This document shows, piece after piece, positions 13,202 to 29,550 of a stretch of 53,149 nt of DNA. The notes below the pieces were generated by a model. The model did not search any database, had not been told where the DNA came from, and saw only the letters and a list, made by a program, of their open reading frames with translations. The position numbers were made by a program, and so were the translations under genes. Source of the DNA: an uncultured cyanobacterium (lineage in GTDB: Bacteria; Cyanobacteriota; Vampirovibrionia; Vampirovibrionales; JAGQHJ01); contig CALAJO010000090.1 in assembly GCA_937922745.1 (NCBI GenBank), positions 1-53,149 on the forward strand, read 5' to 3'. Every line of letters starts with the position of its first letter. Within the stretch, counting starts at the first letter, position 1.

Positions 13202-14557
13202 ATGATCAGCATGCCAATCAGAAGAACATCGTTGCCGCTGGTTTCCGCGCTTGCATTCGCAGGAATCGCGTTAACAACCTTATATATCCGTAAACGTAAC
13301 CGGGAGCGTAAAAGTGAAAATATTCCAACCGATACGGCTTTCGATAACACACTTGCCCTCTTGCAGGAGCCGTATCACTTTATTTCCCGGCGGTGTGAAA
13401 AGCTTCAAAGCGATGTTTTTCAAACCAGAGTCATGTTTCAGGATATGATTTGCATGCGTGGTTCGGCTGCCGCAGCGCTATTTTATGATGAAACCAAGTT
13501 TGTGCGTCTCAAAGCGGCACCGCTTAAACTCAAGTCCACATTATTCGGGTTTGGTGCGGTTCAAGGGATGGATGGCGAGGCCCATCGACATCGGAAGCAG
13601 ATGTTGATGTCCATGATGACCCCACAGAAAATTGGTTCGCTAAGAGCGCTCGCCGCAGAGCAATGGGTGCTTGCAGCGGAAAAATGGAAAAGCCAGGAGC
13701 AGGTTGTGCTGTATGATGCGTTGCACCAGATATTGGGTCGGGCTGTTTATGACTGGTGTGGGGTACCGGTAGAGGAAACCGAGATGCGGATGCGTCTTCA
13801 CGACCTGAGAGCCATGTTTGATTATGCCGGGGCGGTGAACCTGCGCCATTTTGAAGCATCCTTCGCCCGCAGGCGAACCGAAAAGTGGTTATCCGGGCTA
13901 ATTCAGCAAATCCGGGATGGCAAATTAAAGGTGGATGAAGAGAGCCCCGTTTTTATTATTGCCCATTACCGGGATTTAAGTGGCAGCCCGCTTTCCCCGC
14001 ATCAGGCGGCTGTCGAATTGATCAACCTTCTGCGTCCTACGGTTGCCGTTTCCGTTTATATTGTCTTTGTCGCGCATGCCTTGCATCAGAATCCGCGCTG
14101 TTTGGAAGCGTTGAAGGCGGATGAGGGTTACACGGAGCTATTTGTTCAGGAAGTACGGCGGCTCTACCCTTTCTTTCCGGCCGTTATTGCGAAGGTAAGA
14201 GAGGATTTTGAATGGCAAGGTTATGTCTTTAAACAAGGAAAGAAGGTGATGCTGGATCTTTATGGCACCAACCATGATGGCCGAACCTGGCAAAACCCGG
14301 ATGCGTTTGACCCGAAGCGCTTCCTGGATTGGGATGGAAGTCCGTATAATTTCATTCCGCAAGGGGGCGGGGATCACTACAGGGATCATCGCTGTGCCGG
14401 AGAGGCACTAACCATCGATCTCATGAAGGATGCCGTCCGCCTTTTGACAGAAAAGATTCGTTACCAGGTACCAGAGCAGGATTTACGATTGGATTATTCC
14501 AGGTTGCCGGCCCTCCCAAAAAGCCGGTTTATCATCAACCAGGTTCATCTGGTATAA
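13202..14557 (+). CDS. Cytochrome P450, CYP152-type fatty-acid peroxygenase
   Basis: This 451-residue P450 carries an unusual N-terminal hydrophobic segment (about residues 11-29). The CYP152 signatures are clear. The early block ALFYDETKFVRLKAAP is followed by LFGFGAVQGMDGEAHRHRK. The I helix has INLLRPTVAVSVYIVFVAHAL with Arg278-Pro279 in place of the acid-alcohol pair of monooxygenases. The heme loop is FIPQGGGDHYRDHRCAGE with Cys398, and the ExxR motif is E317-R320. In this family the Arg binds the fatty-acid carboxylate and the enzyme uses H2O2 directly, giving alpha/beta-hydroxylation or decarboxylation, so no reductase is needed. It follows the DUF6544 gene in one probable operon. Confidence 0.85.
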   Translation: MISMPIRRTSLPLVSALAFAGIALTTLYIRKRNRERKSENIPTDTAFDNTLALLQEPYHFISRRCEKLQSDVFQTRVMFQDMICMRGSAAAALFYDETKFVRLKAAPLKLKSTLFGFGAVQGMDGEAHRHRKQMLMSMMTPQKIGSLRALAAEQWVLAAEKWKSQEQVVLYDALHQILGRAVYDWCGVPVEETEMRMRLHDLRAMFDYAGAVNLRHFEASFARRRTEKWLSGLIQQIRDGKLKVDEESPVFIIAHYRDLSGSPLSPHQAAVELINLLRPTVAVSVYIVFVAHALHQNPRCLEALKADEGYTELFVQEVRRLYPFFPAVIAKVREDFEWQGYVFKQGKKVMLDLYGTNHDGRTWQNPDAFDPKRFLDWDGSPYNFIPQGGGDHYRDHRCAGEALTIDLMKDAVRLLTEKIRYQVPEQDLRLDYSRLPALPKSRFIINQVHLV

Positions 14558-17807: not shown

Positions 17808-17917
17808 TCGCTCACTCTCCTACGGTTGCGGCGTCCGGATTGCCCTGACCCCTATCCACATAACACCATTCTAGCAGCTTGGGCCTTAACGGGCGTCCAT
17901 TAAATAGTGGTTATCCG

Positions 17918-18250
17918 CTATGGGTGCGAGGGCCTATAATCATGAGCTACGCAGGTTAGATTAGCGCTTATCCCGTTAATCGAGAGCAGTTTAAAACGTC
18001 TCCAGCCAAGCACTAATAGGTTTGTATGAGGTTCGGGCGTTCGTCTACACTTGCCTCCTTTACGTTGTCGCCTGGGAGTGCCCGGTGAAATCCATTGTGA
18101 CGGCCAAAGATGCTGGAATCTTTTGTGGAATGGGGAGACAGGCTTTGTATTGTCACGGCTGTCTGATTCCAAATCAAAATCAACCGTTTCGTCCGCCGGA
18201 ACCAACGGTTCAATCTTAGCCCATTCTTCTTTTAATCGAATTCTCGCCAT
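17918..18250 (-). CDS. Small hypothetical protein, possibly frameshifted
   Basis: The first about 35 residues (MARIRLKEEWAKIEPLVPAD, then ETVDFDLESDS) look like a genuine protein start, and GAGAGG lies 6 bases before the ATG. Beyond that the composition becomes Arg/Pro/Trp-rich and unlike a folded protein. A second frame from about 18160 ends GDNVKEASVDERPNLIQTY, which looks more natural. One frameshift could join the two. I recognise no family. It may be a decayed gene. Confidence 0.3.
   Translation of the reverse strand: MARIRLKEEWAKIEPLVPADETVDFDLESDSRDNTKPVSPFHKRFQHLWPSQWISPGTPRRQRKGGKCRRTPEPHTNLLVLGWRRFKLLSINGISANLTCVAHDYRPSHP
17935..17940 (+). promoter_or_regulatory. Isolated TATAAT box
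   Basis: TATAAT on the plus strand with TTATCC 18 bases upstream (17911-17916). No plus-strand protein gene follows, so it could serve an untranslated RNA or be chance. Confidence 0.25.
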
Positions 18251-18304
18251 CTCAAGCCTCTCTAACTCTAGCTTTTAAGCCCATCCTAATAAAAAATTAC
18301 GGGA

Positions 18305-18430
18305 TGACCTCTATCTCAAGACTCTTCTTATGAGGATTGCGTTGAGTGTACGATAGGAGATAGAGTATGTGATACCTGTAATGGTAGGAAAGGCGCAACG
18401 AACGAGTCCTCATTAGCGCCTTTTATTTTT
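18305..18430 (+). ncRNA. Candidate structured small RNA with kissing loops and terminator
   Basis: No coding frame fits here, but the plus strand folds well. CTCTATCTC (18309-18317) pairs perfectly with GAGATAGAG (18357-18365). Downstream, AAAGGCGC (18389-18396) pairs with GCGCCTTT (18416-18423), followed by a T-rich tail, an intrinsic terminator. The loop of the first hairpin contains ATGAGGA (18330-18336), complementary to TCCTCAT (18407-18413) in the loop of the second, so the two loops could kiss. The following TTGCG also complements CGCAA at the terminator stem. The downstream gene katG is on the opposite strand, so this is not an ordinary leader. Existence as an RNA is inference. Confidence 0.4.
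18389..18430 (+). terminator. Intrinsic terminator of the candidate RNA
   Basis: An 8-bp stem AAAGGCGC/GCGCCTTT has a long 19-base loop and tail TTTTATTTTTG. No plus-strand protein gene ends upstream. Confidence 0.6.
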
Positions 18431-18582
18431 GCTTTGTGATTGGTAGAGTTTTACTGTTGCGTAAAAGCAACAGTATGATAGCTTTGCAAACGAACCGTCT
18501 GTCCGCCGAATCGAAGACATCACCAAATACAGTCGTCCGAAGGTTTGATACCCAAGCTAGATTGAATTGCAAATATGTAGCC

Positions 18583-18613
18583 AAAAGCTGGCTGCCGTGG
18601 CCGGCAACCAGCT
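18583..18613 (-). terminator. Intrinsic terminator of katG
   Basis: On the minus strand AGCTGGTTGCCG pairs with CGGCAGCCAGCT (one G-U) around loop GCCA, followed by TTT. It lies 15 bases beyond the katG stop. The T tract is short. Confidence 0.65.
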
Positions 18614-18627
18614 ATAAAAGGCACTTT

Positions 18628-20862
18628 TTACTTGGAGGCCAAGTCGTATCGATCCAGGTTCATGACTTTTGTCCAGGCCGCAATGAAGTCGCGGACGAAT
18701 TTGTCATTCGCGTTTTCATAGGCGTAAACCTCTGCCACGGCACGCAGCTCCGAGTTGGAGCCGAAGGCCAAATCAACAGGCGTGGCCGTCCACTTTAATT
18801 TGCCGGTTACGCGGTCGCGGCCTTCGTAAAGCCCCTCTAATACAGGTGACTTCGACCACTTTGTTGACATATCAAGCAAGTTCACGAAGAAGTCGTTGTT
18901 TAACGACCCCGGTCGCGCGGTGAATACGCCATGTTTAGACTGGTCGGCATTGGCATTGAGCGAGCGCATTCCGCCAACCAATACCGTCATTTCCGGCACT
19001 GTCAGATTGAGCAGGCTAGCGCGATCCACCAGCATTTCTGCCGAGGTGTAACGGTTACCGTTGGCGTAATAATTACGGAACCCATCGGCAGTCGGCTCCA
19101 TCACGGCAAACGCTTTTACATCGGTCTGTGCCTGAGAGGCATCGTTACGTCCCGGTGTAAAGGGAACCGTAACATTGTGGCCAGCTTCTCTGGCGGCATG
19201 CTCAACCGCTGCCGAACCGGCCAGAACAATGGTATCCGCCAATGAAATTTTGGTACCATCCGTTTTCGAACGATTGAAGTCGCTACGAATTTTTTCCAGG
19301 ACCGTCAGCACCTTATTTAACTCAGCCGGGTTGTTCACGGCCCAGTCTTTTTGTGGGGCAAGACGAATGCGCGCGCCGTTGGCTCCGCCACGCATGTCGG
19401 TGCCTCGGAATGTTGAAGCCGATGCCCAAGCCGTGCGTACAAGTTCAGGAATGGTAAGGCCGGATGACAGGATATCCTTCTTGAGCCGGGCGATATCAAC
19501 ATCACTTACCAACTTATAGTCGATTTGAGGGATCGGATCCTGCCAGAGGAGCGTTTCACTTGGAGCCTCCGGCCCTAGATAGCGTACACGCGGCCCCATG
19601 TCGCGGTGGGTTAGCTTGAACCAAGCCTTGGCAAATGCCAAACGAAATTCTTCCGGATTCTCGCGAAAACGCTGGGCAATGGCACGGTATGCCGGGTCAA
19701 ACTTCAGCGCCAGATCGGTTGTGAACATCATAGGGGCATGGCGCTTGGTCGGGTCATGGGCGTCGGGCACAGATTGCAATTCAGCGGCGTTTACTGGCGT
19801 CCACTGCACGGCGCCCGCAGGACTCTTTGTTTGTACCCAGTCGAATCTGAGTAAGTTATCCAGGTACTGCGTGGTCCACGCGGTGGGGTTGAATGTCCAG
19901 GCCCCCTCCAGGCCGCTGGTTACGGTATGGCCTGCATTACCGGAGCCGCATTTGGAAGTCCAGCCAAAGCCTTGCTCTTCCAAACCTGCAGCGGCAGGCT
20001 CGATGCCAACGCATTCGGATGGTTTATGTGCGCCGTGTGCCTTGCCGAAGGTGTGGCCCCCTGCAATCAATGCAACGGTTTCTTCGTCGTTCATCGCCAT
20101 GTTGCCAAAGGCTTCACGAATATCTTTAGCTGCCGCAATGGGGTCCGGGTTACCGTGTGGGCCCTCAGGGTTCACGTAAATTAGTCCCATCTGGACTGCG
20201 GCCAGTGGGTTTTCCAGCTTTCCGTCCGAGCCATGACGTTTATCAGCCATAAATTCGGTTTCTGGGCCCCAATAAACCAGGTCCGCTTCCCAATCGTCCT
20301 GCCGGCCACCAGCGAAGCCGAAGGTTTGGAAACCCATCGATTCCAGCGCAACGTTGCCCGTCAATACCATTAGATCGGCCCAGGAGATTTTCTCACCGTA
20401 CTTTTGCTTGATTGGCCATAAAAGGCGGCGGGCCTTGTCTAGATTGGCGTTGTCTGGCCAACTATTCAAAGGTTCAAAGCGTTGCTGGCCACCATCTGCG
20501 CCACCACGACCGTCCCAAAGGCGATAAGTCCCTGCGCTGTGCCATGCCATGCGAATGAAAAATGGGCCATAGTTGCCGAAATCGGCAGGCCACCAGTCCT
20601 GCTTTGTTGTCAAAACGGTCTTAATATCTTTTTTTACCGCTGTCAGGTCAAGGTCCTGAAAGGCCTGTGCGTAGTTAAAATCTTTGTCCATGGGATTCGA
20701 GGCTGCGGCATTCCTGCGTAAAGGCGATAAATCAAGCTGATTTGGCCACCAAGCCTGGTTCGTTCTTACTTGCCCTGAGGCATTTACCGGGTGAACCGGA
20801 ACCGTCGTAAGAGATAACGTCAAAGCCATTAACATCAATAACGCGCTTGTTTTACGCTGCAT
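18628..20862 (-). CDS. katG: Catalase-peroxidase with N-terminal signal peptide
   Basis: This 744-residue bifunctional heme enzyme removes H2O2 as catalase and peroxidase. The N-terminal domain has the distal site [12 protein letters not shown] with Arg104, Trp107 and His108. Tyr229 ([10 protein letters not shown]) and Met255 (NMAMNDEE) are present, so the Trp-Tyr-Met adduct needed for catalase activity can form. The proximal heme ligand is His270 in [11 protein letters not shown]. The degenerate C-terminal KatG domain follows from about residue 440. Unlike cytoplasmic KatG, it starts with a typical Sec signal ([20 protein letters not shown], cleavage probably near VNASG). It therefore probably acts in the periplasm, like KatP-type enzymes. 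It is monocistronic with its own promoter and terminator. Confidence 0.95.
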
Positions 20863-28416: not shown

Positions 28417-29412
28417 TTATTTATCCTCAGCCGCCACGGGAGTTGGTTCCACTGGGGTGTCGACTTCGGATTCCACAATTTCCTTAACCTCTTTGGCCTC
28501 GGAAGGTTTGATGAACGAAATCATCCGTGTTTCGGACATTTGGGTGCGCGCTTCTTTCAGGGCAACCCGAACGTCCTCGTCAATTTCCGTGTTGTCAATC
28601 AACCGATCAACCACCCTGGTGTTGAGTTTGAACGCTTGCCCATCCAGCCCGGCCGCCTTGATAATCTTGCGGAGCGCGGCCTCGTTGTACTCGTAATTGC
28701 GGCGATAGGAGGACACCATCAGATCGCCGGAGGTGGTGAGCAATGGCTTGCCGCCCTGCTGAAAATACAGCTTAAAGATGTCCCGCAGATCGTTCATCTC
28801 GGCCTGAAGCATCTGGATGGTGCGCTGCATGCGCAGGTAGCGCTCCGCCAGGTAGGGGATGTTCGTGAGTTGGGACAACTGCCAGGATAGCTGTTGTTCG
28901 TATAAATCCAGCAGTTGCGGATACACCAGCGCCAGGTTACGGGCATCATCCAGTGCGCGGTGCTTCACTTCCTGCGGAAGGCCAAACCGGGTCAGCAGGG
29001 AGGTTAGCCCATGGCTCTGCTCTTCGGGGAAAACGGTTTTATAGATCTCGAACGTATCAATCCGCAGGTTGGTGAGCCGTTTTTCGTACAGGCGTTTGCT
29101 GGCTTCGTTCAAAAAGGTGTAGTCGAAAATGGCGTTATGTGCCACCAGCGGATGATCGCCGATAAACTCCAGCACGGTAGGCATCACCTGGTCAATGGTC
29201 GGGGAATCCTTGACCATTGACCAGGTGATGCCATGGATGTTAAAACTGCTATGTCGGATTGGGACTTCCGGGTTCACCAGGGTTTCGTAAGTCTCAACAA
29301 TCTCCGTTCCCTCAAGGCGAACCGCGCCTATCTCCAAAATGCGTTCAGAGCGGTGATCCAGCCCTGTTGTCTCTAAATCCAGTACGATGACCGTTTTGTG
29401 ATCGGATAGCAT
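28417..29412 (-). CDS. DEDDh 3'-5' exonuclease (DNA polymerase III epsilon-like)
   Basis: This 331-residue protein starts with exonuclease motif I VIVLDLETTGLDH, then motif II around LVAHNAIFDYTFLN, and motif III HRALDDARNLALVY with the DEDDh His. The exonuclease domain takes about 175 residues. A 150-residue C-terminal part is helical, with a coiled-coil-like stretch near MQRTIQMLQAEMNDLRDIF, and ends in an acidic tail (EVDTPVEPTPVAAEDK). It could be the proofreading subunit or a separate repair or RNA-processing exonuclease. I leave the symbol blank. Start ATG 29412 is chosen by family alignment. Confidence 0.85.
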   Translation of the reverse strand: MLSDHKTVIVLDLETTGLDHRSERILEIGAVRLEGTEIVETYETLVNPEVPIRHSSFNIHGITWSMVKDSPTIDQVMPTVLEFIGDHPLVAHNAIFDYTFLNEASKRLYEKRLTNLRIDTFEIYKTVFPEEQSHGLTSLLTRFGLPQEVKHRALDDARNLALVYPQLLDLYEQQLSWQLSQLTNIPYLAERYLRMQRTIQMLQAEMNDLRDIFKLYFQQGGKPLLTTSGDLMVSSYRRNYEYNEAALRKIIKAAGLDGQAFKLNTRVVDRLIDNTEIDEDVRVALKEARTQMSETRMISFIKPSEAKEVKEIVESEVDTPVEPTPVAAEDK

Positions 29413-29550
29413 GAACTCTCTTTTTGCTTGCTCTAAAAACACGTTGAGCCTATTGTAACCAAACCGTCCCATTTTGTCTTGCAATGTTTGCTGGATTTCG
29501 GTGCATGATGCTCAACTTGTTCTATCCTAGCCATATTAGGCCCAAGGCAA

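What the first reader, a model, noticed from the sequence alone, without database searches (positions are those of the whole stretch)
18305..18430. Candidate two-hairpin RNA with complementary loops
Two hairpins lie in a gene-free region: a perfect 9-bp stem at 18309/18357 and a terminator at 18389/18416. The loop of the first holds ATGAGGA and the loop of the second TCCTCAT, perfectly complementary. A kissing interaction or a switch that opens the terminator is possible. No same-strand gene follows, which points to a free small RNA rather than a leader.
Basis: partly seen in the sequence, partly recalled or inferred. Interest (0 to 1): 0.55.

Follow-up and report, generated by a model that had tools for sequence, protein, structure and literature searches.

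The report
Orphan small-RNA candidate with intrinsic terminator
A 130-base stretch between two genes of a Vampirovibrio-like bacterium folds into a long hairpin plus a transcription terminator and looks like a small regulatory RNA gene found in no other genome searched; the matching loops may well be chance.

Summary
The two hairpins and complementary loops are real. Hairpin 1 is longer than described: about 18296-18382 in the predicted fold. The terminator has 7 Watson-Crick pairs (18390-18396/18416-18422), a 19-nt loop and a T-rich tail. The fold is better than chance (z -3.2; 6th of 758 plus-strand windows). The loop match itself is weak: a 7-nt match arises in 6% of shuffled loop pairs, an equally strong duplex in 1%.

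No Rfam family matches. The element is single-copy, and no homologue was found in 193 other relative genomes by DNA, in 381 other genomes of its class with a one-sequence covariance model, or in Vampirovibrio chlorellavorus. Covariation, the decisive test, could not be run.

A nested switch opening the terminator is disfavoured by 15.5 kcal/mol. A kissing contact is possible but unproven. No frame through the element looks coding.

Best reading: a lineage-specific, plus-strand, free small RNA in the 820-bp gap between a methyltransferase gene and katG; the main rival is plain terminator hairpins. Its terminator loop carries a Shine-Dalgarno-complementary UCCUCAU. Cyanobacterial Yfr1, Yfr10 and Yfr2 are the nearest "works-like" analogues; membership is not supported.

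The parts
18296..18382 (+). Hairpin 1, full predicted extent (inner perfect 9-bp stem 18309-18317/18357-18365, outer stem about 18296-18308/18366-18382)
18330..18336 (+). ATGAGGA in the loop of hairpin 1; Shine-Dalgarno-like; mostly buried in a small inner hairpin in the predicted fold
18390..18430 (+). Intrinsic terminator: 7-bp stem 18390-18396/18416-18422, 19-nt loop, T-rich tail
   Evidence: not listed by the simple scan, whose loop limit is 8 nt
18407..18413 (+). TCCTCAT in the terminator loop, complementary to 18330-18336 and Shine-Dalgarno-complementary
18293..18384 (-). On the other strand hairpin 1 is followed by a T-run (TTTTTTATT), a second, weaker terminator-like signal
   Evidence: fold of -15.9 kcal/mol for 18285-18384 minus
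18593..18622 (-). katG's own strong terminator-like hairpin downstream of its stop codon (approximate limits)
   Evidence: fold of -29.2 kcal/mol for 18575-18640 minus

Best explanation
The stretch is the gene of a roughly 130-nt, lineage-specific small RNA read on the plus strand, with a long 5' hairpin and a rho-independent terminator as its 3' end. Shown: sequence, predicted fold, terminator shape, position in a gene-poor gap, single copy, no homologue found. Inferred: that it is transcribed; that the partly accessible UCCUCAU of the terminator loop acts as a seed pairing with Shine-Dalgarno regions of mRNAs; and that the buried UGAGGA of hairpin 1 can pair with that seed and tune it. The last step is the least certain.
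For: Fold z -3.2, 0 of 200 shuffles as good, 6th of 758 plus-strand windows. Terminator pairs have probability 0.79-1.0, with a T-rich tail. AGTCC of the terminator loop is unpaired with probability 0.97 or more, the next two bases about 0.16. No gene follows on the plus strand before katG, which is on the minus strand. All six frames of 18290-18440 score like non-coding sequence (-0.05 to -0.34 against 0.07 to 0.57 for 24 window genes).
Against: No sigma-70-like promoter was found upstream of it. No homologue in 193 other relatives by DNA (the matches listed are short, E 0.003 or more), in 18 and 381 other genomes by covariance model (one partial hit of E 6.5), or in V. chlorellavorus. Hfq was not found in 5 of 5 genomes searched, though sRNAs can act without it. 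No transcript data. The loop match is near chance.
Confidence: 0.5

Rival explanations
1. It is only a set of terminator-type hairpins: two back-to-back terminators in an intergenic gap (hairpin 1 with its T-run stops minus-strand readthrough from katG, hairpin 2 stops stray plus-strand transcription), with no RNA of its own function.
For: Hairpin 1 is followed by TTTTTTATT on the minus strand; strong terminator hairpins usually fold better than shuffles (general knowledge); no promoter found; no conservation.
Against: katG already has its own strong terminator-like hairpin; no convincing plus-strand gene lies upstream that would need the plus terminator.
Confidence: 0.3
2. It is a minus-strand leader or attenuator in front of the 110-codon ORF 18250-17918, which has a plausible Shine-Dalgarno sequence (AGAGAGG) before its ATG.
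For: Terminator-like hairpin 1 precedes the ORF on the minus strand; the first 40 codons score 0.19, within the range of the window's genes; 18313-18325 matches the ORF's ribosome-binding region 12 of 13, so plus-strand RNA could pair with it: -23.5 kcal/mol, 14 of 300 shuffles as good.
Against: The whole ORF scores like a wrong frame (-0.17 against off-frame mean -0.18). No Pfam or NCBIfam match. Only weak hits in relatives (best E 0.006). Hairpin 2 has no T-tail of note on that strand.
Confidence: 0.1
3. It is a CsrA-titrating RNA (RsmY/RsmZ/CsrB type), using its GGA motifs.
For: CsrA is encoded in this genome and in 4 of 4 others searched; four GGA motifs lie in the 143 nt.
Against: The motifs are mostly in stems, not hairpin loops (unpaired probability at most 0.22 except one G). 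Only one copy in the genome.
Confidence: 0.05

Closest known systems
Yfr1, Yfr10 and Yfr2 sRNAs of Cyanobacteria (PMC6778093; abstract and passages seen)
   Same: Yfr1/Yfr10 carry a UCCU-containing motif, in Yfr10 in the loop on top of a stem, that is nearly complementary to a motif of Yfr2; here a UCCUCAU loop faces a complementary UGAGGA-containing loop.
   Different: Here both lie in one molecule; the recalled Yfr1 core CUCCUCAC is absent from the whole window; no Rfam match.
Generic intergenic bacterial sRNA ending in a rho-independent terminator (recalled)
   Same: Size, 5' hairpin, terminator, seed-like loop in the terminator.
   Different: No promoter found, no conservation, no transcript evidence, and Hfq not detected in the genome.
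6S RNA (RF00013)
   Same: Long hairpin with internal loops.
   Different: A better 6S candidate lies elsewhere in this genome (G000:C92:53668-53853, E 2e-6, 39.5 bits, below the cut-off).

Membership tests
Yfr1/Yfr10 | Conserved core motif (CUCCUCAC as recalled) | tested here: not met
   CTCCTCAC has 0 matches in the window; the loop has GTCCTCAT
Yfr1/Yfr10 | Match to an Rfam model of the family | tested here: inconclusive
   No Rfam family at E <= 10 over 18200-18500; whether the library holds a Yfr1 model was not checked
Free sRNA with intrinsic terminator | GC-rich stem followed by a T-tract at the 3' end | tested here: met
   18390-18430
Free sRNA with intrinsic terminator | Own promoter | tested here: inconclusive
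   No sigma-70-like site upstream on +; consensus scan only, other promoter types not covered
Free sRNA with intrinsic terminator | Discrete transcript | not testable with these tools
   No RNA data held
Structured RNA with a conserved fold | Compensatory changes in relatives | tested here: inconclusive
   No homologue to align
CsrA-titrating sRNA | Several GGA motifs in hairpin loops | tested here: not met
   4 GGA, nearly all paired in the predicted ensemble
6S RNA | Match to RF00013 | tested here: not met
   No match at this place; the genome's 6S candidate is elsewhere
Terminator-opening switch | Alternative fold of comparable energy that opens the terminator | tested here: not met
   -27.3 against -42.8 kcal/mol

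The most novel reading that the evidence does not exclude
One RNA of a non-photosynthetic relative of Cyanobacteria carries both a Yfr1/Yfr10-like anti-Shine-Dalgarno loop and its own Yfr2-like sponge loop, so that it regulates itself by a kissing contact: two interacting cyanobacterial sRNAs fused in one molecule.
Probability: 0.04. Interest if true: 0.6.

Novelty: new member of a known kind. Interest (0 to 1): 0.2.

Why it matters
If transcribed, it would be an orphan regulatory RNA in a little-studied predatory lineage. Searches of the held papers for Vampirovibrio with 'small RNA', Vampirovibrio with 'transcriptome' and Yfr1 with Melainabacteria listed no sRNA study of this lineage in the titles and abstract starts shown. 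By itself it is an ordinary kind of candidate.

Tried and rejected
Rfam at gathering threshold and at E <= 10 on 18200-18500: nothing. Phages and plasmids by distant blastn of 17850-18640: no meaningful match. Two exact patterns in viral contigs: none. 6S RNA: rejected, a better candidate is elsewhere. Insertion element or repeat: the 833-bp gap is single-copy in the genome, and its internal repeats are short. Conserved synteny: katG is absent from 4 of 4 other genomes searched; V. chlorellavorus katG (L032) is followed by other sequence. A 43-residue startless frame with cysteine pairs (C-x2-C ... C-x2-C) across the element: no Pfam match.

Pairing with neighbouring translation starts was tested for three element segments against three starts. 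Two of nine combinations stand out against 300 shuffles each: loop 1 with the methyltransferase (7 of 300 as good) and the 5' segment with the 110-codon ORF (14 of 300). With nine tests this is only suggestive. Against 25 starts each of these two is also the best of its segment.

Failures and slips: the fold scan of both strands timed out and was replaced by a coarser plus-strand scan with 12 shuffles per window and a fixed standard deviation of 3.4 kcal/mol. In one search the forced loop-loop pairs, and the second loop segment, were one base off; one search repeats them correctly and its numbers are used.

Full report
Where it is. The window is contig 90 of a 3.16-Mb, 167-contig genome. Its catalase-peroxidase is closest, among the 80 genome-contig loci kept, to that of Vampirovibrio chlorellavorus (74%; near records may be left out there). 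I infer a Vampirovibrio-like bacterium from this, not from a name. The finding lies in an 820-bp gap between a methyltransferase gene (17807-16899, minus) and katG (20862-18628, minus).

What is there. Both hairpins and the complementary 7-mers are present as described. Hairpin 1 is longer than described: the minimum-energy fold runs from about 18296 to 18382, and the terminator follows at 18390-18422 with a T-rich tail. The fold energy is -42.8 kcal/mol against -31.9 for shuffles, z -3.2, 0 of 200 as good. On the minus strand z is -3.1, 1 of 200 as good, so folding alone does not tell the strand; the better T-tail does. By a coarse scan it ranks 6th of 758 plus-strand windows. Thus the fold is better than chance but not unique even in this window.

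The loops. A perfect 7-nt match arises in 6.0% and a duplex as strong (-16.3 kcal/mol) in 1.0% of 5000 shuffles of both loops. In the predicted ensemble GAGGA of loop 1 is buried (0.05-0.22 unpaired), while AGTCC of loop 2 is open (0.97-0.99). A nested fold with the loop-loop helix costs 15.5 kcal/mol, so a switch opening the terminator is unlikely. A kissing contact would cost 3.7 and gain 8.3 to 10.4 kcal/mol before an unknown contact penalty: possible, not shown.

Relatives. With DNA, the only full match in 194 genomes is the window's own; the other matches listed are short and of E 0.003 or more. A covariance model built from the one sequence (entered twice) finds only the window itself at E <= 0.1 in 382 genomes of the class. 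In 19 relatives at E <= 10 it finds the window and one partial hit of E 6.5, and nothing in V. chlorellavorus. A one-sequence model has little reach, and no other genome of the same genus was among the relatives listed, so absence here means only that no near relative is available. Covariation is untested.

Coding. No ORF of 50 codons or more spans the element, and its six frames score as non-coding. The 110-codon minus-strand ORF beside it (18250-17918) scores like a wrong frame over its length (-0.17), though its first 40 codons score 0.19. It has no family match. Small plus-strand ORFs upstream score -0.06 and -0.12.

Mechanism. The most likely working is an ordinary small RNA: a 5' hairpin as body, an intrinsic terminator as 3' end, and UCCUCAU in the terminator loop as a seed for Shine-Dalgarno regions (inferred). 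Hfq was not found in 5 of 5 genomes and CsrA was found in 5 of 5, but the GGA motifs are paired, so a CsrA sponge is unlikely. The main rival is that these are simply terminator hairpins: hairpin 1 has a T-run on the minus strand, and no promoter was found.

Known relatives. Yfr1, Yfr10 and Yfr2 of Cyanobacteria have nearly complementary motifs and interact (PMC6778093, abstract and passages); in Yfr10 the motif sits in a loop on a stem. The resemblance is in working only; the recalled core is not met. PMC6974561 was searched for passages and its main text did not print the motif.

Verdict. Interest is low until a transcript or a near relative is in hand.

Noticed in passing
window 29180-29232: A 26-nt inverted repeat (92% complementary, 1 nt between the arms) inside a minus-strand ORF (28417-29484); it gives the strongest fold of the plus-strand scan (coarse z -7.1). 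It could be chance in coding sequence or an assembly fold-back.
   Followed up: partly
L032 9530-9690: In V. chlorellavorus, a long inverted repeat (TTTTGGCAAGTATCCCTTCACAACAG and its reverse complement, by eye) frames about 100 bp downstream of an ORF.
   Followed up: no
window 18450-18476: A second perfect hairpin (TACTGTTGC/GCAACAGTA) just downstream of the element, fold -15.2 kcal/mol for 18440-18485, without a T-tail.
   Followed up: no
window 13202-14557: CYP152-type fatty-acid peroxygenase relative (NF053744, 559 bits, below its cut-off of 600).
   Followed up: no
G000:C92:53668-53853: Likely divergent 6S RNA of this genome, 39.5 bits, below Rfam's cut-off (46.4); further hits at E <= 1 in 9 of 18 other relatives, one of them over the cut-off.
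   Followed up: no
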